64,000 nucleotides of DNA from Gammaproteobacteria bacterium (GTDB lineage: Bacteria; Pseudomonadota; Gammaproteobacteria; Nitrococcales; Nitrococcaceae): positions 1-64,000 of the forward strand of contig JAUILK010000008.1 of assembly GCA_030433275.1 (NCBI GenBank), in the 5' to 3' direction. Shown in pieces: positions 4,201-56,385 of the stretch. The notes beneath the pieces were generated by a model, which saw only the letters and a program-made list of their open reading frames with translations, ran no database searches and was not told the origin of the DNA. The first letter of the stretch is position 1. The number at the start of each line of letters is the position of its first letter. The position numbers and the translations under genes were made by a program.

Positions 4201-5863
4201 TAAAATCGTAGAAACGCTCGGATATCTCCAGCCTGCGCCGGACGGCGTCGATTGGACGCAGGGTGCGGGCAAAGGCGATCAGCGCGCCTAGCTCGGGAAA
4301 GCACGCGCTCCAACGCTCCAACCAGATCCGGCTAACCACGGCGCGACGATGATAACCATGATAAAAGCCGAGCGCCTGGCGCTCCGTACGGTTCAGCGCT
4401 GCGCTCTTGCGCTCCAGTGCCTGGGCGAGTTCGCCCGGCAGCACGTAATGATCGTATTGCCCGGCCTGGCTGCAATGTTCGATGATACGCCGGCGTGTAC
4501 CACCGGCCGCCATATAGTCGGCGACGCGTGCCAGGAAGGCCATGTCGGTGATTTTGAGTAGTACGCCGTTTTGCTTCGGCCCGGTGCTGCCCGAAAGGGA
4601 GGCCCGCCGGTTAACGACGCGAGGCATGGCCACCCCATGCACACCGAACAGGCCCAGCAGCCCCGTGAGCCGCTCGGCCATGGCGCGGCTGGGCAAGACG
4701 AGAGCAACGTGACCGCATTCGCCTCTCACGCGGCCGCAGGCCTCGATCAGGCCAGCGAGAAATGGCAGGAAATATTTTTGCGGCTGCATTGCGACCCACT
4801 CGGGTAGCTGCGCCTCGTGGTCTTTCCCGATCAGGCCTTCAGCCCCACCGCCTGTTTCCATATCGAAGGCTGCGATCGGATAGTCCCAGGCCGGTGTGCC
4901 CGGCGGCGTATCGACCACGACCATCCGTGGCTGCTGCCCCCCAAAGGCCGCGGCGAGTTCCCAGCCGCGTTTGACGAGATCCCGGCCGACAGCGCCGAAC
5001 TTAAAGAGCAGCCGCGTGGCGCTGATCCGTGCTCGGTGCCGCCGGAACCGCACCAGGGGAAAGGCTGGCCTCTGCGCCGAGCCCGACTGAGTCGAGCAGC
5101 CACGGCCCCAGCGCACGCCCGCTTGCCAGGCCCATAACGCACTTGCCTGTTCGGCCGTCCAGGGGAAAGCATAGTGAACCAAAGCATCGCTCGGGCAGAT
5201 TTCATCAGCGCGGACATAGCGCAGCCGGTTTTGCCGATAGACCAACACCGGGTGCCGGATGGAGGTCTTGAGCGCCGCTCCGTTGGAGACGATCTCGATG
5301 TTTTCCTCGCGCGACACGTGGGTGGTCATATGGCGCTCGATGCGCCGCATCTCGAAGCACTTGCGCTCGCGATCGTAACAGAGCATCCGAGCGTGCCGCT
5401 CGCGCACGGCGCGCTCGGCGCTGACCACACCGTATTCGGTAACGACCCGGCTGGTAGCCGCGACACAGCCGGCCTTCAGCGTCAGTCCGGCTTCATGGAC
5501 CTTGCCCAGGATATCGTCCATCGAGTCTTCGATGGTCGCCGAGACGGTGCAATTGATGGTGGAGGTGGCCGGTTTGTGCGCCCAGGCCCCGGCGTTGGAA
5601 ATAATGCGCCCGGCCGGGATAGCCCCGTGGCGCAGCGCCCAGATGAATTCCTCGTACCACCGCGCCCGCAGTTCCGGGGTCTCCTCGATGTCGGCCAGCG
5701 CTCGCGCCACCCGTTGGAAGGTGGCATCCAAAGTCTCATCGAGAATTTGACCGGCTTTTGTCTTCAGCCGGTACTTGGTGTCCCAAATGTCCTGGGAAGC
5801 GGGCTGCAGAGGGATGTCCGTAACGGTTTCCAACGCCACACCAGCCTGCGCTGCTTTAGCCAT
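1262..5863 (-). CDS. nrdJ: class II (adenosylcobalamin-dependent) ribonucleotide reductase NrdJ carrying two inteins
   Basis: A 1533-codon gene whose host protein is about 718 residues once two inteins (residues 133-574 and 768-1140) are removed. The host protein is a class II ribonucleotide reductase, which makes deoxynucleotides using an adenosylcobalamin-generated thiyl radical. Family marks include the N-terminal Cys in STINCTVSAT, the LKAG/CGIGYEFS segment, the finger-loop NPCGEQPLPP with the radical cysteine 1141 (N-x-C-x-E), and SSIAPTGTISL near the C-terminus. The start is placed at the ATG at 5863 because GGAG lies 10 bases upstream; the ATG at 5872 would leave only one base. NrdR-box-like palindromes lie upstream. 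nrdJb follows. Confidence 0.93.
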   Translation of the reverse strand: MAKAAQAGVALETVTDIPLQPASQDIWDTKYRLKTKAGQILDETLDATFQRVARALADIEETPELRARWYEEFIWALRHGAIPAGRIISNAGAWAHKPATSTINCTVSATIEDSMDDILGKVHEAGLTLKAGCVAATSRVVTEYGVVSAERAVRERHARMLCYDRERKCFEMRRIERHMTTHVSREENIEIVSNGAALKTSIRHPVLVYRQNRLRYVRADEICPSDALVHYAFPWTAEQASALWAWQAGVRWGRGCSTQSGSAQRPAFPLVRFRRHRARISATRLLFKFGAVGRDLVKRGWELAAAFGGQQPRMVVVDTPPGTPAWDYPIAAFDMETGGGAEGLIGKDHEAQLPEWVAMQPQKYFLPFLAGLIEACGRVRGECGHVALVLPSRAMAERLTGLLGLFGVHGVAMPRVVNRRASLSGSTGPKQNGVLLKITDMAFLARVADYMAAGGTRRRIIEHCSQAGQYDHYVLPGELAQALERKSAALNRTERQALGFYHGYHRRAVVSRIWLERWSACFPELGALIAFARTLRPIDAVRRRLEISERFYDFTVEKHNNYLAGENGLMVIHNCGIGYEFSTLRPKGAYVCGAGAYTSGPLSFMDIYDKMCFTVSSAGGRRGAQMATFDVGHPDVLDFIRAKREAGRLRQFNLSLLITDEFMEAVKRGADWPLAFPLGAQEAAADGIDLDDPEQVIWREWPSPQTYVTRKDGLVACRIFRRIKAQRIWDMIMSATYDYAEPGFILIDRVNELNNNWFCEEIRATNPCVTADTRLHTQHGLVPIGELQASGVPIEATVDKRALGEGRGTAARTAKPAFMTARQADVYRVVTEDGYEIKATEWHDFYTERGKVKLRDLGAGDRLLVQSGKGQFGVEGSPELGKLLGLITGDGHFTNRGSGKEAVVINFWGQERSLADAVAGYVNSLIAEVAVSSRQYHVNPVAVPQRKQVFIRSILLARVLAHYGFTRHSKLRVPEVIWRGSQECVKTYLQGLFQADGTVNISSKSLSCSIRLASSYPSLLKDVQMLLANFGVFCRLRTRRKAGCRKLPDGRGGSRAYACRADHELIIDGESREVFMREVGFLLDYKNARYRQWTNGRVLRKTQRFASRIASITYAGREPVYDTTQQDKNTVVFNGLVTGQCGEQPLPPFGACLLGSVNLTKFVREPFTERAWFDWEEYRRVVAVFTRMLDNVVEINGLPLEHQREEILRKRRHGMGFLGLGSALTMLRMEYGAPDSLVFTERAAKEMALAGWRAGLELAEEKGPAPIMDEEFTLTEALLAKRPQMQKDGYRVGQKVKGRVLWARYSRYMQRIAEADPELIERLTEKGARFTHHSSIAPTGTISLSLANNASNGIEPSFAHHYFRNVIRAGRKSKEKVDVYSFELLAYRHFIDSQALPSMDPQTRNLPEYFVTADDITPQQHVDIQAAAQRWIDSSISKTANVPTDYPYEDFKGIYRYAYQQGLKGCTTFRFNPEAFQGVLVKEQDLANTTYRFRLEDGRSVEVKGGDEIEYDGEVHTAANLYDALKEGYYGKW
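2444..3562 (-). other. intein 2 of NrdJ (373 residues), inserted at the radical cysteine
   Basis: In-frame insertion that splits the catalytic loop NP/CGEQ. It starts CVTADTRLHT (block A), has TEWH (block B) and two intact dodecapeptide motifs, LLGLITGDG and LQGLFQADG, each with its acidic residue. It ends VVFNGLVTGQ, so the last intein residue is Gln instead of the usual Asn and the preceding residue is Gly instead of His. The +1 nucleophile is the reductase's own thiyl-radical cysteine. Gln-terminated inteins are known but uncommon. The endonuclease looks potentially active. Confidence 0.88.
4142..5467 (-). other. intein 1 of NrdJ (442 residues)
   Basis: In-frame insertion between LTLKAG and CGIGYEFS of the reductase. 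It begins with Cys 133 (CVAATSRVVT, block A), has SIRH (block B position), and ends LMVIHN followed by Cys +1, so the splicing residues look canonical. A homing-endonuclease-like centre is present, but the first LAGLIDADG motif reads LAGLIEACG at about residues 369-377, with Cys where the catalytic acidic residue is expected. The splicing domain is probably functional while the endonuclease is probably decayed. The boundaries follow directly from reading the uninterrupted host sequence across the junction. Confidence 0.88.
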
Positions 5864-5947
5864 AGACAGCATGCTCCTTTGGTTATATCACAGCCCATTC
5901 CGGGACCGTTTTAACCGCGAAATAATCGCCAAATACAATCGATCCTA

Positions 5948-5998
5948 TACAACATATACGCTAAAAGAATTTGGTCAAGCCCAATATGTTGGGCTTGA
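5948..5998. promoter_or_regulatory. paired NrdR-box-like sites upstream of nrdJ
   Basis: The 24-base segment 5975-5998 is a near-perfect palindrome around CCCAATATGTTGGG (11 of 12 pairs). A weaker A/T-centred site, TACAACATATACGCTA (5948-5963), is centred 31 bp away, which is the spacing typical of NrdR box pairs. On the minus strand a TTGACC hexamer overlaps the strong box and A/T-rich -10-like sequence overlaps the weak one. Binding by NrdR would therefore block the nrdJ promoter. NrdR itself is not encoded in the window. Confidence 0.65.
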
Positions 5999-6092
5999 CG
6001 GGTTATTCACATTGCCTGATATAGGTTATCAATCGACTTGGAGACACAACCGACGCAGACTCGGCATCTGCACGCCTCATCAGTATGAAACG

Positions 6093-7289
6093 TTACCAAA
6101 GACCCTGCTGCGGCGAGGCGAGCGATTCATAGCCATAGCCACCTACTGGGGCATACCCTAGGAAAGGCAGGATTTTGTTTTTCTGACGAAAGGCATCAGC
6201 GTAGCCGAGATCGATCAGTTCCCGGCAATAACCCCGCTCGAAGAGCAGATAACTCATCACGGTGGAGCCCGAGGATTTGGTGGCACCGCTACCGCGGAGG
6301 AAAAACCGCATCGATAATGGTAGCTCATAAGCATGCTGACCGGCGATAGCCGTCAACGAATCGCTGGGCGCGATGGTGAGTACCTCCACCGGACGCAATC
6401 CCAAATTTTCCCGTCGGCGGACCTCCTCAGGGATCAGGGAGACGGTGCGATTGATCCGCTCCAGGCGCTCGAGATCCCCTTCCAACGTATCCAAAAAGGC
6501 ACTGTCCAGTAGATGGCCGGCGATCTGGGCAAGCGACGGCGGGCGCAGCAACACTTCCTTGTACTTCGGCGATTGCCGACTATCCTCATCCACTCCGATC
6601 ACCAAGACACGGTTGGCGCCCAAGTGAAGTGCCGGGCTGATCGGCGCCAAATGCCGTATCGAGCCGTCGCCGAAATACTCCCGGCTGATCGCCACCGCAG
6701 GGAAAATGGCCGGAATGGCTGCTGAGGCCAAAAGGTGTTCAAGGCGTATCTTAGCTGGCCTACCCACTCGCCATGCCCGACGCCAGCCATGCAGTTCCCG
6801 ACTACCCTGGAAGAAGCTCACCGATTCGCCGCTGCCATAGCTCGACGCCGTAATGGCCAGTGCTTGCAGTTCCCCTGCTTCGATTGCCTGGTTAATTCGC
6901 TCGAACCGGATCCGGCGGGCGAGCAACGCGCGCAAGGGATCGTTGTCGAGCAATGACACCGGACGGCGGGCGCCGATTCCGGCGAAGAACAGCGCACTCA
7001 GCCACCGTACCGCGCTGAGAGCCAACTTCCCGAAGTCGGTGACGTAAATATGATTTGCATGGAAATTACCCCAAATAATCTCCAGCCCGCGGATGCCGGC
7101 GCGAAAATGGGCGGTATGAGTCGCCACGGCAACGGCATTAATGGCCCCGGCCGAGGTGCCGCAAATCACGGGGAAGGGGTTGCGCGCCCGTGGGGGCAAC
7201 ATATCCGCTACCGCCTTCAGAACACCCACTTGATATGCGGCCCGTGCTCCACCTCCGGGTAGCACAAGGCCGACGATTGGCTTTGTCAC
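6093..7289 (-). CDS. patatin-like phospholipase
   Basis: About 398 residues from the GTG at 7289; a TTG at 7331 would add 14 residues with no similarity to the fold. The oxyanion-hole glycine motif (LPGGGARAAYQ) comes first. The nucleophile elbow GTSAG follows about 45 residues later. The second half of the Ser-Asp dyad is the Asp in FGDGS. These are the signature elements of bacterial patatins, which hydrolyse acyl chains of phospholipids or other lipids. No signal peptide is visible, so it is likely cytosolic or peripherally membrane-bound. The substrate cannot be read from sequence. It is transcribed away from nrdJ's promoter region and has no obvious operon partner. Confidence 0.87.
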   Translation of the reverse strand: MTKPIVGLVLPGGGARAAYQVGVLKAVADMLPPRARNPFPVICGTSAGAINAVAVATHTAHFRAGIRGLEIIWGNFHANHIYVTDFGKLALSAVRWLSALFFAGIGARRPVSLLDNDPLRALLARRIRFERINQAIEAGELQALAITASSYGSGESVSFFQGSRELHGWRRAWRVGRPAKIRLEHLLASAAIPAIFPAVAISREYFGDGSIRHLAPISPALHLGANRVLVIGVDEDSRQSPKYKEVLLRPPSLAQIAGHLLDSAFLDTLEGDLERLERINRTVSLIPEEVRRRENLGLRPVEVLTIAPSDSLTAIAGQHAYELPLSMRFFLRGSGATKSSGSTVMSYLLFERGYCRELIDLGYADAFRQKNKILPFLGYAPVGGYGYESLASPQQGLW

Positions 7290-7503
7290 ACTGCTGGTCC
7301 CGCACCCAGTCAACGCCTCTCCCCGGTGCAACCACCTCGCTGGCGATTCCTAGTGGCATGAGTACCAGCAGGCACGTTGGTTTGGCAAGCCCGTAGTGGC
7401 GAAACGCGAGGTGTCGGTCGGCCGGGCGGACACAGCCCCTCACTATGCCCGGCGCTGCCGACGGAGCAGCGTAAAGACGTGCGCGATTTACCGGGCGGGA
7501 GTT

Positions 7504-8250
7504 TCAGGCGTACTTGTGAAGGCCGCACTCACGCTTCAGGCCAAAAAACCGTGTCTCCTCCTCCTCCATACCCTCGGCCAGCGGCAAGGTGGTATGAATA
7601 TCGCCGATGGAGACATAGCCCTCGTGCCACAGCGGGTGATAGGGCAGATCATGGATCGTGAGGTAATCATAGATCTGGCGGTCGTTCCAGTCGACGATTG
7701 GGTGGACCTTCACTCGTCCATTCTGAAGCCCTACGACCGGCAAGGATCGCCGAGTTCGGGCCTGCTGGCGGCGCACTCCGGCAAGCCAAGCGTGGGCGTC
7801 GAGCTCGCGCAATGCCTGCTGCATCGGCTCGATTTTGGTGATTCGGTTATACCGATCGATTCCGTCTACGCCTTGTTCCCAAAGTTTGCCGTAGCGGGCT
7901 TCTTGCCAGGCCGGTGTCAGCTCGGAGCGATAAATTTTCAAATTGAGTGACAACCGCTCAGTCAATTCATCGACGAATCGGTAGGTTTCCGCAAACAGAT
8001 AGCCGGTATCGATTAAAATCACCGGGATATCGGGCTGCTGCCGGGTGACCAGGTGCAGCATCACCGCAGACTGGGCTCCGAAGCTCGAGGAGAGCACCAC
8101 GTGGCGACCGAATGTCTCCAAAGCCCAAGCGATTCGGCTCTCGGCATCCGCCTGTTCCAGCTCAGAGTTGGCGCGATCGAGATCCAGCTGTTCCGGATCG
8201 AGAACCATTTGTTCTTCTCTCAAAACCCGTACTGCCCTATTCATCACCAT
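7504..8250 (-). CDS. cysH: phosphoadenosine phosphosulfate (PAPS) reductase
   Basis: About 248 residues, closely resembling E. coli CysH. The PP-loop-type [14 protein letters not shown] lies near the N-terminus and the catalytic cysteine is in the C-terminal KRECGLH motif. The paired CC/CxxC cysteines that bind a [4Fe-4S] cluster in APS reductases are absent: the position reads NRITKIEPM. This is therefore the thioredoxin-dependent, iron-sulfur-free type that reduces PAPS to sulfite in assimilatory sulfate reduction. Several start codons are clustered (GTG 8253, ATG 8250, ATG 8244) and none has a strong Shine-Dalgarno sequence; 8250 is a compromise. No other cys genes are adjacent. Confidence 0.93.
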
Positions 8251-8487
8251 CACCTTCGGTAGATATGCCTCTGGGCATCAACCGGGAAAATCGATAGATT
8301 GGCAATGAAACTACGGATGCGGGTTCATATTGGGAAGGAATTAATATCTCTAACTTTAATCTTTAATGTTATAAAAATGGGTCACTACTGCGTCGGCATA
8401 ATGCACCCAACACCACCGGACCGTCGTCAGACAGCCAAACGGTATCACTCCACATCTTCCTGTATGGAATTGTGCGCAATGTGCGAA

Positions 8488-9267
8488 TCAATGCGTCCCG
8501 TCCGATGAAGAGCGAACCGGTTTAACCGGTAATGCGCCCCAGGTTTGGGTGATCGGCATAACCTCGATACTGTTGATATTCACCTGCGAGGGCATTTTGA
8601 CCACCCAATTGATGATCTCCGCGATATCTTCCGGCACGAGTGGATCGTTGCCTCGATAAAGACGCTCAGCTTTCGCCCGGTCGCCTTTAAAACGCACAAG
8701 CGAAAATTCAGTCTCACACAGCCCAGGCTCGATATTGGTCACCCGAACGCGGGTACCGATAAGATCGGCGCGCAGGTTGCGCGAGAATTGCTGCACGAAA
8801 GCTTTGCTCGCCCCATAGACATGGGCACCAGGATATGGCCAATTTCCGGCGATCGAACCCAGGTTGACCACATGCCCACGGTTGCGCTCCACCATTCCAG
8901 GCAGAATGGCGCGGGTTACATACAACAAACCCTTGATGTTGGTGTCGACCATTGTGTCCCAATCATCCAGATCGGCTTGCCATGCCGGCTCGAGCCCTAA
9001 CGCCAGCCCAGCATTGTTGACCAGCAGCCTCACGTCGCGAAACGGTGCCGGCCGCTCGCCGAGCTTTGTTGTCACAGCCGCACGATCCCGTACGTCCAGC
9101 TCTATTACGTAAACCTTCGCCTCGCCGCCAAGCTCCTCTTGCAGCCTTCGCAGCCGTTCCATACGCCGCGCGACGAGCACCAAACGCCAACCCTCGTTGG
9201 CAAATCGTCGGGCGAGCGCTTCACCGAAGCCACTCGATGCACCCGTGATCAAGGCCGTTGAACTCAC
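8488..9267 (-). CDS. short-chain dehydrogenase/reductase, YdfG-like
   Basis: Classical SDR of about 259 residues. The cofactor motif TGASSGFG lies at the N-terminus, then NNAG in the middle. The active site has Ser in NLGSIAG and the YGASK (Tyr-x3-Lys) pair. The C-terminal region (VPEDIAEIINWVV, INSIEVMP) follows the pattern of the E. coli YdfG group, which are NADP-dependent 3-hydroxy-acid dehydrogenases. The substrate here is inferred only. Start placed at the GTG at 9267 (adjacent GTG at 9270), just after a GGGGAAGGG purine run; a longer start would add residues that do not belong to the fold. It begins 20 bases after the upstream hypothetical gene stops, so they probably form a two-gene operon. 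Confidence 0.85.
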   Translation of the reverse strand: MSSTALITGASSGFGEALARRFANEGWRLVLVARRMERLRRLQEELGGEAKVYVIELDVRDRAAVTTKLGERPAPFRDVRLLVNNAGLALGLEPAWQADLDDWDTMVDTNIKGLLYVTRAILPGMVERNRGHVVNLGSIAGNWPYPGAHVYGASKAFVQQFSRNLRADLIGTRVRVTNIEPGLCETEFSLVRFKGDRAKAERLYRGNDPLVPEDIAEIINWVVKMPSQVNINSIEVMPITQTWGALPVKPVRSSSDGTH

Positions 9268-45105: not shown

Positions 45106-45813
45106 CTAAACCGGCGACTCCGGCTCGCTGCGCTTCCGCGGCCGCCCGGACTTGCCCTGGGTCACCCGCCGCCCCAGCGCGGCCGCTATCTGTGCCTGGA
45201 ACCGTGAACCGCCCAGGGCGAAGTTGCCATTCGTCGCGGCGCGAATTTCGTCGACCGTCCCCGGATCAAGTTGGTAGCAGAAAAGCTCCCGGTAGGCGGC
45301 TTGCCGGGCCTCGGCGTCATTACCCAAAGCCGTGTAGAGCCGGTGCGGTGTCAACAGCGTGGAAGGCTCGCCCTGGGCGTTGGCCCGGTAGCTTGACCAG
45401 GGATACTCCGCCGGGTGTCCGACCAGTCTCGCACGCACTGGATTGAGTTCGATGTAGCGATAGCAACCCAGCACATAGTCCTCTTCCTGAGTCAGGCAAG
45501 AACGAAAGCGACCCTCCCAGAGGGTGCCGCTGCGACGCGTGGTTCGATTGACGTATTGGACGTAGCGCTGCCCCAACCGTTTCATCAGTTCGCTGGCGCC
45601 GGTCGATGTGCGGGGCGTCAGGAGCAGATGGACATGGTTGGTCATAAGGACGTAGGCGTAGATGGCACAAGCGCTCGACTGTGCGTATTCCTCCAGCCAG
45701 CCAAGATAAGCGCGGTAGTCCTCATCGGCGAAGAAACAGGCCTGGCGATTGTTGCCGCGCTGAATCAGGTGCAACGGTACCCCGGCAAGCATAACCCGTG
45801 GCCGTCTTGGCAT
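45106..45813 (-). mobile_element. REP-associated tyrosine transposase (RAYT, Y1/HUH family)
   Basis: 235 residues and apparently intact. The N-terminus PRRPRVMLAGVPLHLIQRGNN and the HUH motif in MTNHVHLLLTP are diagnostic of the IS200-like Y1 superfamily. The nucleophile Tyr is probably in RYVQYVNR, within the GTLWEGRF context. ELNPVRARLV and PWSSYRAN are further RAYT marks. The basic C-terminus (GRPRKRSEP) may bind DNA. RAYTs are linked to REP sequences and generally do not mobilise their own gene; most are single-copy. A 12-bp inverted repeat flanks it. Confidence 0.92.
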
Positions 45814-46276: not shown

Positions 46277-49200
46277 CTAGTCGTCATCCTGATCTTCGTG
46301 ATCGCTAATTATTCGTTCAGCCTCTCGGTCGTAGCCGTCCGCCAATTTTCTCAAGGTAACAGCAAATCGCTGAAAACCGACGTTCTCCACTTCCTCGGCT
46401 TTACTTCGGAACTGCTCAGCCAGTTCTCTCTCCGGTTTGCCGGTTGGATCAACCCAATGAACTCCGCGTGAGTTGTATGTGCCTGTACTAAAGCCATTGC
46501 GCATGTCCTCAGCTTCACGGTCATTCAGTGCAGCGGCGGCAGCGCGGTGTATCCATAAGCCGCCTGGGTCGGGTGGTGTGTGAATCAATACTTCACCAAT
46601 ATTGATGAATGCAACTTCCAGGTGGCCGGATTCCGTACAGACGTTCTTGACCCTTTGGAGCCATTCGGTGAAGCGCTCTGCGCTGAACGTTCCATCTTCT
46701 TGTAGCCCCGGCGGCGTCTTCCACTCATGGAGCAGCCGCCAGGCATTTGTTGCGATTGCCCTTGTTTCCTCGGTGGGTTCCTTCGGGGGCTGATCTTCTT
46801 TTGTGGATCGGTAAATCAGTCGGATTACCTCTGAAAAGAACTCGGGATCACTGGCCAGCCTGTTTTCAAGGAGTAGGGGCGCGGCACCTTGATGACGGTC
46901 CAGCAAGGGAACGTATGCCCACTCCACTCTGAAAAGGTCGTCCTGGTTGACCGTAGGCTCCGCCTGAAGCAACTTGATCAGTTCGACGATGTGGTATCCG
47001 TCCATGGCGTAGCTAGGCTCATTGGAGGAAAGAGCTGCGAGCAAAGCTCGAAGACATTGATTAACATCGATTGGCTGCTTGGCATGACGCATCCTGTCCA
47101 GGCACTGGATTGCCGCGTGTGGTCGGCCATGTTCAATGAGCTTTTCAATAGCAATGGCAAGACTGCCATCAGCCTGATACGCATTGGCGCCAGTGCGGGC
47201 CCAATATTCACTCTCGTCTTTTTGAAGCCATGCAGAAGCACGATCCCATGCTTCCTTGGTAAATGGCAAACAGGCCAGGAATTGCCCTACTTGCTCTGGC
47301 GTCCAATCAGATTTATCGATGTCGTCGCACCAATCCCAACCTTTGGCGTGGTAGCGCCGCCATATAAAACCGCCCACCAATGCCATACGCTTGTTGTCCG
47401 ATGAATCCAAAAAATGGGATAAAAAGGACCGTTCAAACACATCATCGGCAATAACGCCAAGCGCGTCCCCAACCTGTCCGGGTGAAGAAACGGCTTCTGC
47501 AAACCGAATAACACCCTCGGCACCATTTTGCTGATAGATTTCTGCTATGGCCGTTTGTCGTCGCGTGTCGAGTTTCTTTCGCTGCTTCTCCCAATCGCCG
47601 TTCTCCTCGTAGAGATCAAAATCACGATCCGTAAAGAGGTGCTGATATAAAATGAACGGGTTCGTTGGGGCGAGCTCTTCGGCAACTTGTTCAATGCGGG
47701 TAATCAGTTCGTTGGGCAATGCCCATTTTGCATCGGAGAAGCGCCGGTGTTTGTTTGTGAATTTCGTCAGATGGTCCCACATCGAAAAACGTTGTTCTTC
47801 AGGAAGTTCTGAAATGGGCTGGGAGGCCAGAGCTTCGAGTAGTTGATCAAACGCGAGTTTAGAGAGGTTATCAAAATGGTCAATCAATGCAGAAAGCCGA
47901 GCGGTATCTTGACCTGCGGCAGCCACTGCAAGTTCCGCGCAAAAAGATGCCTGCTGCCAATATTCCTGATGCGTAACGCTTTTTTTCCCGTCGTCGGGGA
48001 TTGTTTTACGCCAGCTGGGTCTGTGCGATCCGGAAGAGATCTGGTGCTGACCCGGCAGAAGCTGAATGATCAGATTCCAAGCGATATCCGGCCATTCGTG
48101 AAGGATCGTCCGCACCGCCACCTTGCGTTTGTCAACGGACGCCAACGTTTGCGGCAGCCAAGGCAGCAAAATGGTTACAAGGGAATTGAATGGGCGATTG
48201 GCCCACTGGCCACCAGGGTCATGGCTGGCAAGTTCACCAAGAGCAACACACACACGAACCAGGTATTCTTCGTCCCAGGCTAGCCCTTCCAAAGCCCAGA
48301 GCAGGCCAGTTAAATAATTGCCACCGGTGATGCCGTTACCTTCCTGCGAAAAAAGCTCATCAAACGGGAACGGCGTAAGACGCATCGCCTTCTCGACGGC
48401 ATTAAGAAATTCATCGGGAGCGGCTTCGGCCAGAATGGGCAATAAACTATCCAATGTGCCCCAAAGAACCCAGTCAGCGTCGATCATAAGTTCACGTATC
48501 ACCAACACGCAGGTTGCTTCAGCTTTTTCTTGCGAGCAGTTACCACAAGCATCGGGCTGGGCACCCAGAATGGCTAGACCCTCCGCGATTCCTTTTCGCA
48601 ATACGTGCGAACACTTCAGCACCTTGCCATGAATACTCGCCGCGTATCGCTCTTCGGCAGGTAGTTCAAAAGCGGGGTCTGGCTCTTTCAGTACGGAAAC
48701 TACCAGCGATCTAAACGTATCGAGGTTCTGATCAAGGATACGCGATCCCAGCTGGTTCCAGAGTTCGGTTCGATTGACAACTTTCCAGATACCGTTTTTA
48801 AGAGACAACGCGCTGTTAGGGCAATGCAATATTTCCCTTGCCTTCTTTAGCCATTCGTCATAGCTGATGCCGAGCAACTGGGTTATCGCTTCAAGGTCGC
48901 ATTGACTCTTTTCGCTCCAGGAACCAATTAAAACTGCCAGGGCCAGATAAGTGGCATCGGGGTGATGAGTCCAATCAATTTTAGGTTTCTCTTGCGCTTC
49001 CTTGAACTCCTCGGGCATCTCCGCCACGGCATTTTGCTTAAAGGCTTCCAGAAGATCGTCCGGTAGCTTTTCAGAAGTGATAGTGCCGGCATCCTGATTC
49101 CACGTCTGTACGATATCAACGATCCTTGACCAGACCCGCTGCGGAAACTGCTGCTGGAACTGGGAAATGTGGGAATGCAACAGAGATAGAACAACGCCGA

Positions 49201-49819
49201 ACTCGTTACCAAGATCGTAGCTAAGTAGATGGAAGTGGTTTAGGAAGTCATAGAGTTCGTCCCTTGAAACCTCATTGCCGCCGTTTGCTGCCTTCAGGTG
49301 GTGTCGAATAACATCAAGTTTGTCGATGCTTTGCGGTGGACTGAACTTCGCCTGCTGGACATTTCTGAGAAACTCGTCAACGTTCTTGGTGTGCCTCGCC
49401 TGGTTCAGCAGCCATTGTATATTGCGTGCATCGGTCGCGTTGAGCGGGCCTGTGAGCAGCGCAATAATATCCTTATCCCTTGTGAATACCTTGGGATTAT
49501 TGAAATCATTCCATGCAGCCTGCATCACCTCTCCAAACAGAGCGCTGCCCTGGGTGATGTAAATGGAATGCTTGACCTGCCCGAGAAGTTTCTGCCGTTC
49601 CTTGCTGTTTACGTTTTCTACGACAACAACGAGGTCGTCTGTATTAAAACCGTCGATCTTGCCCTGAAGTTTTATTTCCTTAATGGGCCAGCAAGGAAGA
49701 CAGGGGGCGTGCCCGCCGGTAAGCATAAGCGCAACAAATGACGCCTGGACATGCGCTTCAAAATGAACGCCGCCACCTCCTGTGGAAAATGGATTGCTTA
49801 GATTCATCTTTTCTGCCAT
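46277..49819 (-). CDS. large standalone protein with putative PD-(D/E)xK (Cap4/DUF4297-like) nuclease N-terminus
   Basis: 1180 residues. The first ~120 residues begin NPFSTGGGGVHFEAHVQASF and continue LMLTGGHAPC, KLQGKIDGFNTDDLVVVVEN and LLGQVKHSIYI. The order Glu in FEAHVQ, Asp in DGFNTDD and QVK is that of the Mrr/Cap4-type QxK nuclease fold used in many antiphage proteins. The remaining ~1000 residues look all-helical with repeated Leu-rich helices and many Trp, like HEAT or TPR repeats. I find no Walker A motif, toxin motif or membrane helix. The ATG at 49819 (or 49807) has only a weak Shine-Dalgarno sequence. It is A/T-richer than its neighbours and lies beside transposase remnants, fitting a transferred defence gene; that function is inference. 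Confidence 0.7.
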   Translation of the reverse strand: MAEKMNLSNPFSTGGGGVHFEAHVQASFVALMLTGGHAPCLPCWPIKEIKLQGKIDGFNTDDLVVVVENVNSKERQKLLGQVKHSIYITQGSALFGEVMQAAWNDFNNPKVFTRDKDIIALLTGPLNATDARNIQWLLNQARHTKNVDEFLRNVQQAKFSPPQSIDKLDVIRHHLKAANGGNEVSRDELYDFLNHFHLLSYDLGNEFGVVLSLLHSHISQFQQQFPQRVWSRIVDIVQTWNQDAGTITSEKLPDDLLEAFKQNAVAEMPEEFKEAQEKPKIDWTHHPDATYLALAVLIGSWSEKSQCDLEAITQLLGISYDEWLKKAREILHCPNSALSLKNGIWKVVNRTELWNQLGSRILDQNLDTFRSLVVSVLKEPDPAFELPAEERYAASIHGKVLKCSHVLRKGIAEGLAILGAQPDACGNCSQEKAEATCVLVIRELMIDADWVLWGTLDSLLPILAEAAPDEFLNAVEKAMRLTPFPFDELFSQEGNGITGGNYLTGLLWALEGLAWDEEYLVRVCVALGELASHDPGGQWANRPFNSLVTILLPWLPQTLASVDKRKVAVRTILHEWPDIAWNLIIQLLPGQHQISSGSHRPSWRKTIPDDGKKSVTHQEYWQQASFCAELAVAAAGQDTARLSALIDHFDNLSKLAFDQLLEALASQPISELPEEQRFSMWDHLTKFTNKHRRFSDAKWALPNELITRIEQVAEELAPTNPFILYQHLFTDRDFDLYEENGDWEKQRKKLDTRRQTAIAEIYQQNGAEGVIRFAEAVSSPGQVGDALGVIADDVFERSFLSHFLDSSDNKRMALVGGFIWRRYHAKGWDWCDDIDKSDWTPEQVGQFLACLPFTKEAWDRASAWLQKDESEYWARTGANAYQADGSLAIAIEKLIEHGRPHAAIQCLDRMRHAKQPIDVNQCLRALLAALSSNEPSYAMDGYHIVELIKLLQAEPTVNQDDLFRVEWAYVPLLDRHQGAAPLLLENRLASDPEFFSEVIRLIYRSTKEDQPPKEPTEETRAIATNAWRLLHEWKTPPGLQEDGTFSAERFTEWLQRVKNVCTESGHLEVAFINIGEVLIHTPPDPGGLWIHRAAAAALNDREAEDMRNGFSTGTYNSRGVHWVDPTGKPERELAEQFRSKAEEVENVGFQRFAVTLRKLADGYDREAERIISDHEDQDDD

Positions 49820-50009: not shown

Positions 50010-51125
50010 TCACTCCCAACTCAACGCCCCACCTGTCCGATATTCAGTGACCCGTGTCTCAAAAAAGTTTTTCTCCTTTTTGAGATCCACCAGCTCGCTC
50101 ATCCACGGCAGGGGGTTCTCGGCGCCCGGGAACGCCTCGGTGAGGCCGATCTGGGCGAGGCGGCGGTTGGTGATGAAGCGCAGGTATTCCTCGATCATCT
50201 CGGCGTTCAGGCCGAGCACGCCGCGCGGCAGGGTGTCACGGGCGTATTCGACCTCGAGCGCCATGCTCTCGAGGATGACGCGCCGGGCGGTGGCCTGGAA
50301 CTCGGCGGTCCAGAGATGCGGGTTCTCCTGCTTGATCTGGTTGATGACGTCGATGCCGAAGTTAAGATGCATGGACTCATCACGCAGGATGTACTGGAAC
50401 TGCTCGGCGGTGCCGGTCATCTTGTTGCGCCGGCCCATCGCCAGCACCTGCGCGAAGCCGGTGTAGAAGAAGATCCCCTCGAAGCACACGTAGAAGGCGA
50501 TGAGGTCGCGTAGCAGCCGCTGGTCCGCCGCCGGCGTGCCGGTGTGGAAGTCCGGGTCGCCCAGGCTCTCGGTGAACGGCAGCGCCCATTCCGCCTTGCG
50601 GGCGACCGAGGGCACCTCCCGGTACATGTTGAACACCTCGCCCTCGTCCATCGCCAGGGATTCGATGACGTACTGGTAGGCGTGCGTGTGCAGCGCCTCC
50701 TCGAAGGCCTGCCGTAACAGGTACTGCCGGCACTCGGGGTTGGTGATGTGGCGGTAGACGGCGAGCACCAGGTTGTTCGCCACCAGCGAGTCCGCGGTGG
50801 AGAAAAACCCCAGGCTGCGCTTGACGATGGTGCGCTCGTCCTCGGTCAGCCCGTCGCGGCTTTTCCAAAGCTCGATGTCCCGGCCCATGGGGATCTCCTG
50901 GGGCATCCAGTGGTTGGCGCTGCCCTGCAGGTATTTCTCCCAGGCCCAGTGGTACTTGAAGGGCACCAGCTGGTTGAGGTCGGCGCGGCAGTTGATGATG
51001 CGCTTGTCGTCGACGCGCACCCGCGCGGCGCCGCGCTCGGGCGCATCGAGGCCGGTAGGGCTGCTCGCAGCCGGCACGGGTGTCGGGTGAGTAGCAGCGA
51101 CGGTGGGCTCGTTCCAGTTCAGCAT
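50010..51125 (-). CDS. nrdB: class Ia ribonucleotide reductase, beta (R2) subunit
   Basis: 371 residues. All di-iron ligands of R2 are visible: Asp112 (STADSL), Glu143 and His146 ([10 protein letters not shown]), Glu216 (FEGIFF), and Glu250 and His253 ([10 protein letters not shown]). Tyr150, four residues after His146, is in the position of the radical tyrosine (Tyr122 in E. coli). The C-terminus ([11 protein letters not shown]) should dock onto NrdA. It generates the tyrosyl radical used by NrdA in aerobic deoxynucleotide synthesis. The ATG at 51125 has AAGGAG about ten bases upstream. It lies 67 bases after nrdA on the same strand. Confidence 0.96.
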
Positions 51126-51192: not shown

Positions 51193-54100
51193 TTACTGGC
51201 AGGCCTCGCAATCGGGGTCTTCGACGTTGCAGCTCTGCGCCGCGGGCTCGGCCGCCACCCGGTTGAGGGCGCCGTCGGCGACGGTGGACTTCTCCACGTG
51301 CGTCGCCCCGAGCGAGCGCAGGTAATAGGTCGTCTTCAGCCCGCGGCGCCAGGCGTTGCGGTAGAGCGCATCGAGCTTCGGCCCCGAGGCCTCGGCCATG
51401 TAGAGGTTGAGCGACTGGGACTGATCGAGCCATTTCTGCCGGCGGCTCGCGGCCTCGACCAGCCAGTTGGGGTCGATCTCGAAGGCGGTGGCATAGAGCG
51501 CCTTGAGCGCCTCGGGCACCCGCTCGATGACCTGCACGGAGCCGTCGAAGTACTTGAGGTCGTTGACGAGCACCGCATCCCAGAGCCCGCGCGCCTTGAG
51601 CGCCGCGACCAGATGGGGATTCACCACGGTGAACTCGCCGGAGAGGTTCGATTTCACGAAGAGGTTGCGGTAGGTGGGCTCGATGCTCGGCGAGACGCCG
51701 ACGATGTTGGCAATGGTCGCGGTGGGGGCGATCGCGAGGCAGTTCGAGTTGCGCATGCCGGTGCGCCGGATGCGCTCGCGCAGGGCGTCCCAGTCGAGCG
51801 TGGCGGAGGTGTCCATGTCGAGCGCCTCGCCGCGCTGCTCGGCGAGCAGGCGAATGGAGTCGATCGGCAAAATGCCCCGGCTCCACAGCGAACCGGCGAA
51901 GCTCGCGTACGGGCCGCGCTCCTCGGCCAGCTCGGTGGAGGCCGCGATGGCGTGGTAGCTGACCGCCTCCATGGAGCGGTCGGCGAACGCCACCGCCTCA
52001 TCGCTCGCGTACGGCAGCCCGAGCCGGTAGAGGGCGTCCTGAAAGCCCATCACCCCGAGACCCACGGGCCGGTGGCGGAGATTCGCTCGCCGCGCCTGGG
52101 GGACGCTGTACCAGTTGATGTCGATGACGTTGTCGAGCATGCGCATCGCGGTGCGCACGGTGCGCTCCAAGCGTACGGCATCGAGGCCCTCGGCGCCGAC
52201 GTGGGCGGCGAGGTTCACCGAGCCGAGGTTGCACACGGCGATCTCATCGCCCGAAGTGTTGAGCGTGATCTCGGTGCAAAGGTTGGAGGAGTGCACCACA
52301 CCGGCGTGCTGCTGCGGCGAGCGGGCGTTGCACGCGTCCTTGAAGGTGATCCAGGGATGGCCGGTTTCGAAGAGCATGGTGAGCATGCGCCGCCATAGCG
52401 AAACGGCCGAGACGCGCTTGTAGTTGCGGATCTCGCCGCGCTCGGCGCTCGCCTCGTATTCGCGGTAGCGCGCCTCGAACGCCTCGCCGTAGAGATCGTG
52501 CAGATCGGGAACCTCATCCGGCGAGAACAGCGTCCAGTCCGCCTCGTCGATCACCCGGCGCATGAACAGATCCGGCACCCAGTTGGCGGTGTTCATGTCG
52601 TGGGTGCGGCGGCGATCGTCGCCGGTGTTCTTGCGCAGCTCCAGAAACTCCTCGATATCGAGGTGCCAGGTCTCCAGATAGGCGCAGACCGCCCCCTTGC
52701 GTTTGCCGCCGTTGTGTGCCAGCGCAGCGGCGGTCATATAGGACGGATCGCCCTCCACCTTGAGGTCGTAGACGCAGGACGCCGGTTCAATCTCCCGGCA
52801 AGCGCGCACGCGGCTAAAAATGCAGCCCCCATGCTCGATCCAGTTGCGCTTGGTCAACGTCCGACAACCGATGCGCTCAGCGAGCTCTGCCACCGCCGGG
52901 ATACGGAGGTCCACGGCCTTGACCGTGCCCATGAACCGTACAGCGCTACCATCGCTGCGGCGGCCCTCGTGGTTTTGCAAGCGCTCCCGATATTGCCCAG
53001 CGGTGGGCACGCCCAAGCGTAGGAGCTGATAGCGCAGCCCCTCAGCCAGCGCTCGCGAGGTGCTGGTGAAGTAGATTTCCTTGCCCCGGCTGATCCCACC
53101 ATCGGTTTCCAGCAGGCCCTGCACCAGGGACAGGGTCTGCGAACGCGGCAGATGGCTGAAGCGCCGATGAATGCGCTTGTTGCCTTGCGGGTCGCACAGA
53201 TCGTCATATGTAAACGGCAGAGTGGCAACGCCGGCCCCGGTGATTCGGCCAGTGGTGGCATCACGCAGCACACCGCACCCGGCCGCCCAGTGGACCTGGG
53301 CGTAGCTCGTGCCTCGGGCAGTCGTCCAAAAATGGATACCACGGGCTTTGAGGTAATCGCGCACGAATCGAAGATGGCCGTCCTTCTCGGGATTGCCGGA
53401 CACGCCCCACTGTCGGCCGCCCTTGGAGAGATGACCATCGCCGAGCAGAATACCGTACAGTCGGGCGTCGTCATCATTCAGCCCATCGACGGGCACTACT
53501 TCCTTGGGGACCACCTGAGCGACGTAATCACCCCGCGTCAATTCGCCGGCCGCGACCCACTGCGGTTTCACCTTACCTTTGCTCAACCAACTCTCGGTTC
53601 GATGGCCGGCCTGTTCCATCGGTACACCGCGCAACGCCCACAACGGATGTCCGGTAGTCACCCGGATCGGCTCGATGGCGTGCTTGATGTTCAACTCCAC
53701 CATGGGCTCGGTCTGGTGATACGAGAATTTATCTTCGACCTGCCGGTACTCGCCGCGCTGACCCACTACCAGATCACGCGTTGTGACCTCCGCAATCGGC
53801 TTCGCGCCGTCTGCTGTATGCACCGGCGTGTCGGCGGCGAAACACTGATTGACCGCGACCGCCGTATCGTTGGCCACCTTGAGGAAAGGCACCACGCCCT
53901 GGGAGCGCCCGTTGGTGCCCTTGATGTGGGCGCCGAGCGCGCGCACGCCGGTCCAGTCGTTGCCGAGCCCGCCGGCGAACTTGGAGAGCAGCGCGTTGTC
54001 GCGGATGGCCGAGTAAATGCCGTCGAGATCGTCGGGCACCGTGGTGAGATAGCAGCTCGATAACTGCGGGCGGCGGGTGCCGGCGTTGAACAGCGTCGGC

Positions 54101-55143
54101 GTGGAACTCATGAAATCGAACGAGGCGAGCAGGCGGTAGAACTCCTCGGCGCGGTCCTCGCGGTCGATCTCGTTCAGCGCGAGCCCCATGGCGACGCGCA
54201 TGAAGAACGCCTGGGGCAGCTCGAAGCGCGTGCCGTCGCAGTGCAGGAAGTAGCGATCGTAGAGGGTCTGCAGACCGAGGTAGCCGAACTGGCGGTCGCG
54301 CGCCGGTTCGAGCGCCCGGCCGAGCCGCTCGAGATCGAATTCGAGCAGCCGCGAATCGAGCAGCTCGAGCTCCACGCCCCGGCGCACGTAGGCGGTGAAA
54401 TACTCCGGATAGCGCTGCGCCATCTCCTCGAAGCCGGCGGCCGCCGCGGCGCCGGCGAGAAAGCTCAGCGCCTCACGGCGCAAGGCGTCCAGCAGCAGAC
54501 CGGCGGCGACGTAGCTGTAGCCGGGCTCCTGCTCGATCAGCGTGCGCGCGCACATCACCAGCGCGGTGTCGATCTCTCTCTCCGGCACGCCGTCGTAGAG
54601 GTTGCGCCGCGTGGCCTCGATGATCGCCACCGGGTCCACACCGGCGACGCCGTGACAGGACTCGGCGACGAGGTGATGCAGGCGGGCCTCGTCAAGCGGT
54701 ACTTGGCGGCCGTCCGCCCGAGTCACGCGCAGACTCTCGGCCTGCGCCGCCGCCGGCTCGGCCTGATCTTGCCGGGCACGGGCGCGCTCCTCGCGGTAGA
54801 GCACGTAGGCGCGCGCCACGCGGTGTTCGCCGGCGCGCATCAGCGCAAGCTCGACCTGATCTTGAATATCCTCGATGTGGACGCGGCCGCCGGCGGGTTG
54901 GCGGCGGGCCAGCGCCTCGACCACCTGGCTGGCCAGACGCGCCACCGTCTCACGGATGCGCTGCGAACCCGAGGCGTTGGCACCCTCGACGGCCAGGTAG
55001 GCCTTGGTCATGGCCACGGTGATCTTGTCCGGATCGAAGGACGAGACCTGGCCGTCCCGGCGGATGACGTGAAGGTCTATGGCCTGGGATTCAGAGTGTT
55101 CGAACGATTCAGCTGGCGGGGAAACGACGCTTTGAGCCGGCAT
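51193..55143 (-). CDS. nrdA: class Ia ribonucleotide reductase, alpha (R1) subunit, with one intein
   Basis: 1316 codons; the host protein is about 938 residues after removing the intein at 434-811. Two N-terminal ATP-cone-like regions ([17 protein letters not shown], then [19 protein letters not shown]) point to allosteric control by ATP/d[12 protein letters not shown] and SSCYL are the barrel start. The radical cysteine lies in [10 protein letters not shown], and the C-terminal redox pair ends the protein (DCEACQ). The ATG at 55143 is chosen because GGAGG lies six bases upstream; the open frame continues 93 codons further but overlaps the cobalamin riboswitch. NrdR-box-like sites lie over the promoter. 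nrdB follows. Confidence 0.95.
52711..53844 (-). other. intein of NrdA (378 residues), Gly at the +1 position
   Basis: In-frame insertion between DTAVAVNQ and [13 protein letters not shown]. It starts [10 protein letters not shown] (block A), has TTGHP (block B), two intact endonuclease motifs (LYGILLGDG and [10 protein letters not shown]), and ends ALAHN. The following residue is Gly812. Canonical inteins need Cys, Ser or Thr at +1, so the junction is atypical. The host sequence on both sides matches the uninterrupted enzyme, so the boundary reading is firm. Whether it splices by a variant mechanism or only cleaves is inference. Confidence 0.88.
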
Positions 55144-55390
55144 GGTTACCTCCGGTATCAGATCCTTCGATCGGAGGAACCCGCGCGCGCAGTCACCGGG
55201 CAGGGACAGCCCACGAAGCGGAATGCACCCATACCGGGAGCCTTTGACGCGAAGGTCTCCTACGGCGGACACCGCCGCGAGCGACGGCATCCGTGGCCTC
55301 GGGTGGTGATCGGGCTTCGCGGTCAAAACCGCGTTACCGTTGCGCGACAGCCCCGGATTTACACCGGCGTTCCCCACCCCTGACAACCTA
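55144..55390 (-). ncRNA. cobalamin riboswitch leader of nrdAB
   Basis: Read on the minus strand, the leader contains GGGGAACGCCGG, the core GGTGTAAATCCGG, then CTGTCGCGCAACGGTAAC. After a short CGCGG/CCGCG hairpin comes the B12-box-like AGCCCGATCACCACCC (55301-55316). GGGTGG at the 5' side can pair with CCACCC of the box. Near the gene, GGTTCCTCCG (55172-55181) is complementary to CGGAGGTAACC over the ribosome-binding site (55144-55154), giving a sequestering hairpin. The expected effect is to turn off B12-independent reductase when cobalamin is plentiful, as known for Streptomyces nrdAB. Confidence 0.85.
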
Positions 55391-55431
55391 AATATAGGAT
55401 GTAGAGTAATATTGAGGCCCAATATATTGGG
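55387..55431. promoter_or_regulatory. paired NrdR-box-like sites upstream of nrdA
   Basis: CCCAATATATTGGG at 55418-55431 is a perfect 14-base palindrome. CCTAAATATAGG at 55387-55398 is a second, weaker palindrome centred 32 bp away. On the minus strand TTGGGC with an A/T-rich -10-like segment about 17 bases on suggests the boxes overlap the promoter. The strong box shares its CCCAATAT core with the site upstream of nrdJ. Confidence 0.7.
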
Positions 55432-55458
55432 TGACGACGCCTAAAGCAAGCTCGTTGT

Positions 55459-56385
55459 TCAGACACCGAGCGGCTCGATTCCGCTCAGCCGCTCGGCGGT
55501 TACCGCGCGGGCGAGCCTCAGGAAGGCCTCGATGAACGGAGCCGCCCGGCTCTCTTCGCGGACTGCGGCATACAATGGGCTCCAGAGCCCGCCGCGGCCC
55601 AAGGGGCGGGCGACCAACTGCCCTTGATCCCGGTATTCGTCCAGCGCCCAGTTCGGCAGGGCCGCCACGCCGCGCCGGCTCACCACGAGCTGAATGATCA
55701 TCACGGTCAGCTCCGAAGTCCGCACGGCCGCCGGCTCCACGCCGGCCGGCTCGAGAAAGCGGGCGAACACGTCCAAACGGCTGCGGCACACCGGATAGGT
55801 GATCAGCGTCGTGGCGGCCAGATCCTGCGGCGCCAGCCAGGCTTTGCTCGCCAAGGGTGATCCGGTATGCATCGCCAATAGCACCTCGTGGCGGAACAAC
55901 GGCTCGTAATGAATCCCCCGCAGGTCCGGGTCCGGATCGGAGGTCACCACCAAATCGATTTCGCCGCGCACCAAGGCCGGCAAGGGATGGAAGCTGAACC
56001 CGAGCGAGAGGTCCATCTCCACCACCGGCCAGTCCTCCCGATAACGGTCCATGGTGGGCAACAACCACTGGAAGCAGCTGTGACATTCAATGGCAATGTG
56101 CAACCGGCCTTGGCGCCCGAGCGCCATGCCCGCGAGCCGCTGCTCCGCCGCCACCACCTCGGGCAACAGCCGCTCAGCGAGATCCGCCAGCAGCTCTCCG
56201 GCCGGGCTCAAACGCAGCGGCCGGGACTGCCGGAAGAACAGCGTCGTATCGAAGTGCTGCTCCAAGGCTTTTATCTGGTGCGACAAAGCGCTTTGCGTGA
56301 CGTGCAGCCGCGTCGCGGCTCCGGCCAGGCTCCCGACAGCGCGGATTGCCTGCAGCGTGCGTAGGTGACGAAATTCCAGGTACAT
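55459..56385 (-). CDS. metR: LysR-family regulator of methionine biosynthesis MetR
   Basis: 308 residues. The winged HTH is N-terminal (RHLRTLQAI, AATRLHVTQSALSHQIKALE). The effector domain (about 90-300) includes MDLSLGFSFHPL and the YEPLFRHEVLLAMH segment typical of MetR. The divergent position to metE and the site between them match E. coli MetR, which activates metE with homocysteine as co-effector. It converges on nrdA's leader with about 30 bases between its stop and the NrdR boxes. The ATG at 56385 begins MYLEFRHL, as in relatives. Confidence 0.9.
   Translation of the reverse strand: MYLEFRHLRTLQAIRAVGSLAGAATRLHVTQSALSHQIKALEQHFDTTLFFRQSRPLRLSPAGELLADLAERLLPEVVAAEQRLAGMALGRQGRLHIAIECHSCFQWLLPTMDRYREDWPVVEMDLSLGFSFHPLPALVRGEIDLVVTSDPDPDLRGIHYEPLFRHEVLLAMHTGSPLASKAWLAPQDLAATTLITYPVCRSRLDVFARFLEPAGVEPAAVRTSELTVMIIQLVVSRRGVAALPNWALDEYRDQGQLVARPLGRGGLWSPLYAAVREESRAAPFIEAFLRLARAVTAERLSGIEPLGV

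What the first reader, a model, noticed from the sequence alone, without database searches (positions are those of the whole stretch)
55144..55390. Cobalamin riboswitch controls a class Ia (B12-independent) ribonucleotide reductase
The nrdA leader holds the conserved cobalamin-riboswitch words (GGTGTAAATCCGG, CGCGCAACGGTAAC, AGCCCGATCACC) in the right order on the coding strand. A downstream arm is complementary to the nrdA ribosome-binding site, so both aptamer and expression platform can be read. Known precedent is Streptomyces nrdABS; a gammaproteobacterial case beside an intein-bearing nrdA is notable.
Basis: partly seen in the sequence, partly recalled or inferred. Interest (0 to 1): 0.75.

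Follow-up and report, generated by a model that had tools for sequence, protein, structure and literature searches.

The report
Vitamin B12 switch on nrdAB

Summary
Confirmed. Rfam finds one RNA family at gathering threshold in the window: AdoCbl riboswitch RF01482, 58.2 bits, E 4.2e-8, at 55400-55270(-), before nrdA 55143-51193(-) and nrdB. The same window encodes B12-dependent class II NrdJ (5872-1262(-)), without a riboswitch. The genome has NrdR, a BtuB-like receptor under its other cobalamin riboswitch, MetH and MetE; CbiC, CobT and class III NrdD were not found. In the window's order, 17 of 54 genomes carry a class I RNR; 16 of these have a cobalamin riboswitch upstream of it (15 homologous nrdA leaders, one other aptamer before nrdIEF). 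Aptamer helices covary. The platform reads as a translational OFF switch: L5-L13 kissing (CGCG:CGCG) with P13 leaves an anti-SD free to pair the nrdA SD; without ligand, the P13 5' arm plus L13 pairs with that strand. Tandem NrdR-like boxes precede both nrdA and nrdJ. Precedents: Streptomyces nrdABS, Propionibacterium acnes nrdAB. The intein is incidental (1 of 15). New member of a known kind; ligand binding and switching are untested.

The parts
55444..55449 (-). weak -35-like hexamer TTGCTT
   Evidence: 17 nt from the -10-like hexamer; TTGC[CT]T kept in the 5 genus members. The promoter scan did not report it (3 of 6 matches to TTGACA).
55417..55432 (.). NrdR-like box 1, ACCCAATATATTGGGC, holding the -10-like TATATT (55426-55421)
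   Evidence: score 13.5 with a weight matrix made from a recalled consensus
55385..55400 (.). NrdR-like box 2, ATCCTATATTTAGGTT, 32 bp from box 1, overlapping the 5' end of the Rfam match
   Evidence: score 12.5
55270..55400 (-). AdoCbl/cobalamin riboswitch aptamer
   Evidence: RF01482, 58.2 bits, E 4.2e-8
55343..55346 (-). L5 loop CGCG, predicted kissing partner of L13
55302..55316 (-). B12-box-like stretch AGCCCGATCACCACC
   Evidence: resembles AGCCAGGAGACCTGCC of the canonical elements (name B12 box recalled)
55237..55260 (-). P13 hairpin, GGAGACCTT-CGCGTCA-AAGGCTCC, with L13 CGCG at 55251-55248
   Evidence: identical but for one loop base in 5 genus members; P13 with CGCG loop in 15 leaders
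55172..55189 (-). switch strand CGCGCGCGGGTTCCTCCG: pairs either with P13 5' arm plus L13 (antisequestor) or, by its 3' part, with the SD (sequestor)
   Evidence: duplexes -19.0 (p 0.067) and -19.3 kcal/mol (p 0.030); cognate preference for the antisequestor, 468 of 40320 permutations as good
55144..55154 (-). nrdA Shine-Dalgarno region CGGAGGTAACC
51193..55143 (-). nrdA, class Ia RNR alpha subunit, 1316 aa with a 378-aa intein-like insert
   Evidence: PRK07207.1, 1667 bits; PF02867, PF00317, 2 ATP-cone stretches
52711..53844 (-). intein-like insert in nrdA (aa 434-811)
   Evidence: LAGLIDADG_3 over cut-off, Hint_2 below it; junction AVNQ|C...HN|GG
50010..51125 (-). nrdB, class Ia RNR beta subunit
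   Evidence: PRK07209.1, 669 bits; PF00268
1262..5872 (-). nrdJ, adenosylcobalamin-dependent class II RNR with two intein-like inserts
   Evidence: TIGR02504, 514.8 bits, cut-off 399.95; whole-genome hit
5947..5994 (.). tandem NrdR-like boxes upstream of nrdJ, 32 bp apart; no riboswitch
   Evidence: scores 11.5 and 11.8; one search lists no other gathering-level RNA family in the window
55459..56385 (-). LysR-type regulator between nrdA and metE
   Evidence: PF03466, PF00126
56498..58804 (+). metE, B12-independent methionine synthase, no riboswitch
   Evidence: TIGR01371, 1117 bits

Best explanation
The nrdAB transcript starts within or next to NrdR box 1 and carries an adenosylcobalamin-type riboswitch that shuts off translation of nrdA when cobalamin is present. 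With ligand: the aptamer folds, L5 (CGCG) kisses L13 (CGCG), P13 is stabilised, the GGTTCCTCCG strand is left free and pairs with the SD CGGAGGTAACC, and translation is blocked. Without ligand: the P13 5' arm plus L13 pairs with the CGCGCGCGGGTTCC strand, which holds the anti-SD, so the SD is open. NrdR, through tandem boxes, would repress both nrdAB and nrdJ when dNTPs suffice, while the riboswitch adds B12 control to nrdAB only. Net effect: with scavenged B12 the cell uses NrdJ; without B12 it uses NrdAB. Shown: aptamer match, gene identities, conservation, aptamer covariation, complementarities. Inferred: ligand, direction, translational rather than transcriptional control, start site, NrdR binding, physiology.
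For: RF01482 match and RF00174 match. Gene identities. Conserved leaders in 5 of 5 genus genomes and 15 of 54 genomes of the order. Covariation in P3 and P6. In 14 of 15 leaders the best duplex of the P13 5' arm plus L13 falls on a strand ending 9-16 nt before the SD region, and in 14 of 15 the SD's best partner is that near-SD strand (exceptions G035 and G007 respectively). Using one genome per genus (8), cognate antisequestor pairs beat all but 468 of 40320 permutations. No intrinsic terminator found at 54900-55700. Of 17 genomes in the order with a class I RNR, 16 have a cobalamin riboswitch upstream of it. NrdJ found in 14 of the 15 homologous cases, one of them partial. NrdR present; a receptor best matching TIGR01779 (B12 receptor, below that model's cut-off) under the other riboswitch; MetH present; CobT and CbiC not found; NrdD not found. 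In 64 kb, NrdR-like pairs spaced 30-33 bp with both scores 11.5 or more occur only before nrdA and nrdJ.
Against: RF00174 only just reaches its threshold here. Against shuffles, individual antisequestor p-values run from 0.013 to 0.58 and sequestor ones from 0.007 to 0.29, so no single leader is decisive. The sequestor shows no cognate preference (18245 of 40320), as expected for an invariant SD but no support. In G035 the best antisequestor duplex lies elsewhere and in G007 the SD's best partner is a neighbouring strand. In G035 and G052 the minimum-energy fold holds an antisequestor-like and a sequestor helix together (read by eye), so strict exclusion fails there in silico. G004 has the switch but no NrdJ was found (660 contigs), and G038 has a class I RNR without the switch. 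Nothing tests ligand binding or expression.
Confidence: 0.88

Rival explanations
1. Same aptamer, but control is transcriptional: ligand-dependent premature termination (for instance Rho-dependent) in the leader, as inferred for Propionibacterium acnes nrdAB, and not RBS sequestration.
For: In P. acnes much nrdAB transcription appears to end before the first gene and the leader holds a cobalamin riboswitch (passages of PMC3848588). Streptomyces nrdABS is described as transcriptional (title and citing passages only).
Against: No intrinsic terminator found at 54900-55700; in 14 of 15 leaders the SD's best partner is the near-SD switch strand.
Confidence: 0.12
2. An ON switch: cobalamin raises nrdAB expression, since the P13 3' strand CTCC-C-GGTAT is also complementary to ATACC-GGAG at the SD in the window's genus.
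For: The two strands are complementary in the window's genus; in G004 one pair carries a matched change, beside a new mismatch (read by eye). Activating corrinoid riboswitches exist (PMC10653944, passages).
Against: It would raise the B12-independent enzyme when B12 is present; published B12-independent isozymes are proposed to be repressed (PMC545781). I did not test this pairing systematically outside the genus.
Confidence: 0.04
3. Degenerate relic: an aptamer-like leader that no longer binds a corrinoid, with nrdAB controlled only by NrdR.
For: Low RF00174 score.
Against: Core strongly conserved in 15 leaders across 8 genera, compensatory changes, full-length RF01482 match.
Confidence: 0.04

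Closest known systems
Streptomyces coelicolor nrdABS B12 riboswitch (Borovok 2006; cited passages seen in PMC4991794 and PMC5962746, paper itself not held)
   Same: Cobalamin riboswitch before class Ia nrdAB in a genome that also has class II NrdJ.
   Different: Reported as transcriptional control in an actinobacterium; here a translational platform is predicted. I did not look for NrdS.
Propionibacterium acnes nrdAB (PMC3848588, passages seen)
   Same: NrdR box plus cobalamin riboswitch on nrdAB; NrdR boxes but no riboswitch on the nrdJ operon.
   Different: nrdRJ is one operon there, nrdDG is also annotated with a riboswitch, a single box lies at nrdAB, and leader transcripts appear to terminate early.
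delta-proteobacterial nrdDG B12 elements (PMC545781, passages seen)
   Same: B12-independent RNR under a B12 element, NrdJ in the genome, same proposed logic.
   Different: Class III RNR, not class Ia.
Escherichia coli btuB and env8HyCbl translational riboswitches (as described in PMC10653944, passages seen)
   Same: L5-L13 kissing stabilises P13 and favours an RBS hairpin.
   Different: Here L13 itself is predicted to belong to the alternative (antisequestor) helix; the kissing sequence is CGCG and not the UCCCG-type L5.

Membership tests
AdoCbl/cobalamin riboswitch (Rfam clan CL00101) | Covariance-model score over the gathering threshold | tested here: met
   RF01482 58.2 bits against 50; RF00174 31.5 against 31.5
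AdoCbl/cobalamin riboswitch (Rfam clan CL00101) | Conserved core and B12-box-like stretch with covarying helices | tested here: met
   15 leaders
AdoCbl/cobalamin riboswitch (Rfam clan CL00101) | L5-L13 kissing interaction | tested here: inconclusive
   CGCG:CGCG complementarity in 15 of 15 leaders; invariant there, so no covariation within the set; canonical elements carry a C-rich L5
AdoCbl/cobalamin riboswitch (Rfam clan CL00101) | Binds a cobalamin with gene control | not testable with these tools
   needs in-line probing and reporters
B12 riboswitch on a B12-independent RNR (Streptomyces nrdABS kind) | Lies upstream of a B12-independent RNR on the same strand | tested here: met
   nrdA and nrdB
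B12 riboswitch on a B12-independent RNR (Streptomyces nrdABS kind) | Genome also encodes B12-dependent NrdJ | tested here: met
   P0002, TIGR02504
NrdR regulon | nrdR gene and tandem boxes about 3 helical turns apart before nrd genes | tested here: met
   TIGR00244 210 bits; box pairs; consensus recalled, binding not tested

The most novel reading that the evidence does not exclude
The leader is a three-strand switch in which the kissing-loop sequence L13 is itself half of the antisequestor: the strand beside the anti-SD carries a copy of L5's CGCG, so L5 and this mimic compete for L13, and ligand decides directly by capturing L13. This differs from the P13 3'-arm antiterminator shown for Priestia megaterium metE (PMC10653944, passages) and would be a distinct expression-platform design shared by the nrdAB leaders of this order.
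Probability: 0.5. Interest if true: 0.45.

Novelty: new member of a known kind. Interest (0 to 1): 0.35.

Why it matters
It gives a gammaproteobacterial, apparently B12-scavenging lineage (Nitrococcus, by the label of a record that appears to be a genome of the same genus) a clear RNA circuit for choosing between two ribonucleotide reductases, with 15 natural variants of one expression platform. The near-complete rule in this order (16 of 17 class I RNRs preceded by a cobalamin riboswitch, in two different aptamer forms) shows how tightly the class I/class II choice is tied to B12. It is an orderly extension of known biology, not a surprise.

Tried and rejected
Rejected: chance match (E 4.2e-8; conserved leaders). 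Rejected: link between intein and riboswitch (insert in 1 of 15 riboswitch-bearing nrdA genes; the 5 insert-bearing nrdA loci among 70 of 80 that could be parsed, have no riboswitch). Not supported: an intrinsic terminator. Led nowhere: a core regular expression for riboswitches in the 80 nrdA loci missed 4 of 6 loci already known to match and was replaced by model R2; model R1 alone missed canonical ones. The P6 regex misread G016 and G023. MAFFT alignment A3 shifts P3 by one column between groups, so P3 was counted from strings and not from the alignment. Vitreschak 2003, Rodionov 2003 and Borovok 2006 were not held. The passages shown of PMC8123684, PMC9600662, PMC6759758, PMC4465626, PMC2864759, PMC8620254, PMC8026999, PMC3223726 and PMC2667541 report no cobalamin riboswitch before a gammaproteobacterial nrdAB.

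Mended on re-check: 8 genus labels, not 10; G007 is an exception for the sequestor strand; the ON rival was not tested outside the genus; fold states were re-read.

Full report
OBSERVATION. On the minus strand upstream of nrdA the three words of the finding stand in order. A scan of all 64000 bases against 4227 Rfam families gave one match at gathering level, RF01482 AdoCbl riboswitch, 55400-55270(-), 58.2 bits, E 4.2e-8, whole model. With RF00174 the same place scores exactly the threshold, 31.5 bits. In the window's genome (3.41 Mb, 104 contigs, 100% complete by the tool's figure) RF00174 finds two places: this one and a strong one (115 bits) at C4:10505-10240(-), before an ORF that best matches TIGR01779 TonB-dependent B12 receptor (433.5 bits, below that model's cut-off of 599.7).

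GENES. nrdA, 1316 aa, is PRK07207 (1667 bits) with two ATP-cone stretches and a 378-aa insert; nrdB is PRK07209 (669 bits). At the other end of the window lies a second RNR large chain, TIGR02504 NrdJ_Z at 514.8 bits against a cut-off of 399.95, with two inserts. So the B12-dependent and the B12-independent enzyme are in one window. The genome has NrdR, MetH and MetE (near nrdA); CobT, CbiC/CobH and class III NrdD were not found. The absence of CobT and CbiC suggests that B12 is scavenged; only these two markers were tested.

HOST. NrdA's nearest named record is JAKDMQ010000276.1, Nitrococcus sp. MAG (82% in the matched part); it has the same length, 3988, as contig C106 of genome G003 in the window's genus. 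The genus label Nitrococcus rests on this.

DISTRIBUTION. All 5 of 5 genomes of the genus have both riboswitches by RF00174 at E 5e-5 or better (the nrdA copy of G002 scores 27.7 bits, below the cut-off). In the order, 54 genomes were searched with RF01482, TIGR02504, RF00174 and PF00268. A riboswitch directly before nrdA is present in 15: G000-G008, G014, G015, G016, G023, G035, G052, in 8 genus labels and 4 family labels (recount); only 3 of the 15 pass the RF01482 cut-off, 14 of 15 the RF00174 cut-off. NrdB over cut-off was found in 14 genomes and nrdA without NrdB in 3 more fragmented ones (G003, G004, G007), 17 in all; a sub-threshold 76-aa NrdB-like fragment in G018 was left out. The two further class I cases are G051, where nrdI-nrdE-nrdF (PF07972, PF08343, PF02867, PF00268) follows a canonical riboswitch of 146.6 bits, and G038, an unlike class I RNR with no riboswitch in the 12 kb fetched. 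So 16 of 17. NrdJ is present in 14 of the 15 (G007 partial, with one stop, below cut-off); none was found in G004.

OUTSIDE THE ORDER. Rfam confirms L016 and L047, L053, L074, L077, L078; the other 11 of 12 loci had no cobalamin match at gathering level; the remaining 63 of 80 were not given to Rfam. L047, L053, L074, L077, L078 supplied 6 of the 12 sequences from which R2 was built, so they match by construction. The 7 loci with alphaproteobacterial titles (4 Bradyrhizobium, Afipia, Microvirga, Phyllobacteriaceae) are all positive. Some loci have under 1 kb of upstream sequence, so 11 is a lower bound.

STRUCTURE. In 15 leaders P3 pair 3 is A-U in 10 and U-A in 5; P3 pair 5 is G-C in 8, C-G in 2, A-U in 1 and no pair in 4; P6 pair 3 is C-G in 11 and U-A in 2, pair 4 G-C in 10 and A-U in 3, the other two rows (G016, G023) being misread by my regex. 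P13 with loop CGCG follows in all 15 and L5 carries CGCG in all 15. In G035 and G052 the bases beside both CGCG loops change together (L5 U to A, L13 U to A), as in L078 outside the order; this is not a Watson-Crick exchange and I cannot explain it.

EXPRESSION PLATFORM. The P13 5' arm plus L13 (for example GGAACCUUCGCG in G014) is complementary to a strand just before the SD (CGCGAUGGUUCC), whose 3' part is complementary to the SD. In 14 of 15 leaders the best duplex of that arm falls there, ending 9-16 nt before the SD region; in G035 it lies 48 nt away. Energies are -16.4 to -21.0 kcal/mol; against 300 dinucleotide shuffles each, p is 0.013-0.58. Sequestor energies are -14.6 to -19.3, p 0.007-0.29; in G007 the best SD partner is a neighbouring strand. 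With one representative for each of the 8 genera, cognate arms and strands pair better than permuted ones: 468 of 40320 permutations are as good; for P13 1121; for the sequestor 18245. Much of the signal seems to come from G005, where the arm reads GGAAUC, the switch strand GAUUCC and the SD side AAUC, against GGAACC, GGUUCC and AACC in others: a matched change on all three strands. Minimum-energy folds of the region (read by eye) show P13 with the sequestor in G000, G001, G005, G014, G015, G016; the sequestor without P13 in G003; the antisequestor in G004, G006, G007, G008, G023; both an antisequestor-like helix and a sequestor in G035 and G052; another fold in G002. The aptamer was not in these folds. 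No intrinsic terminator was found at 54900-55700.

NrdR. With a weight matrix from a recalled consensus, 13 of 15 leaders have two boxes 31-32 bp apart among their four best positions (G005's second is weak at 9.5; G023 and G035 do not). In the window, pairs spaced 30-33 bp with both scores at least 11.5 occur before nrdA (seen on both strands, being palindromic) and before nrdJ only, both at 32 bp. Both RNRs would thus answer to NrdR and only nrdAB to cobalamin.

LITERATURE. P. acnes shows a like layout (PMC3848588, passages); delta-proteobacterial nrdDG carries B12 elements with NrdJ in the genome, with the same proposed logic (PMC545781, passages); Streptomyces nrdABS is known (cited in passages of PMC4991794 and PMC5962746). 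Searches for a gammaproteobacterial or Nitrococcus nrdAB case listed none that I recognised, but not every listed paper was opened and the founding papers are not held. The kissing-loop logic is described in PMC10653944 (passages): there the P13 3' side forms the antiterminator; here the P13 5' side and L13 would form the antisequestor.

VERDICT. Observation confirmed, interpretation supported, new member of a known kind; what may be new is the L13-containing antisequestor, which needs the bench.

Noticed in passing
window 53844-52711 (-); L021, L022, L033, L063, L069: The nrdA insert lies at AVNQ|C...HN|GG, so the residue after the insert is Gly and not Cys, Ser or Thr; the 5 insert-bearing loci among 70 parsed nrdA loci show the same junction. 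Splicing by the usual route needs a nucleophile there. I recall an InBase entry of this kind for Azotobacter; not checked.
   Followed up: partly
window 5467-4142 and 3562-2444 (-): nrdJ carries two intein-like inserts (442 and 373 aa by my junction reading); the first ends HN|C, the second GQ|C. The two alternative RNRs of this genome together hold three.
   Followed up: partly
L142 (G051:C1), about 2523-9094 (-): Class Ib nrdIEF follows a canonical cobalamin riboswitch (146.6 bits), then come a second riboswitch and a TonB-dependent receptor: the same logic with another enzyme class and another aptamer form.
   Followed up: partly
L143 (G038:C1) 5244-8056 (-): An unlike class I RNR with the NrdB-like gene before the NrdA-like gene and no cobalamin riboswitch within the 12 kb fetched: the one exception in the order.
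   Followed up: partly
window 55347-55343 and 55251-55247 (-); G035, G052, L078: Bases flanking the L5 and L13 CGCG change together (U/U to A/A) though they cannot form a Watson-Crick pair.
   Followed up: no
L074 5294-5846: Bradyrhizobium cenepequi has two divergent cobalamin riboswitches back to back upstream of nrdA.
   Followed up: no
window 46277-49819 (-): A 1180-aa ORF just downstream of nrdB has no Pfam match at 1e-3 and no NCBIfam match better than E 0.2.
   Followed up: partly
window 45106-45813 (-): IS200-like Y1 transposase gene (PF01797) downstream of that ORF.
   Followed up: no
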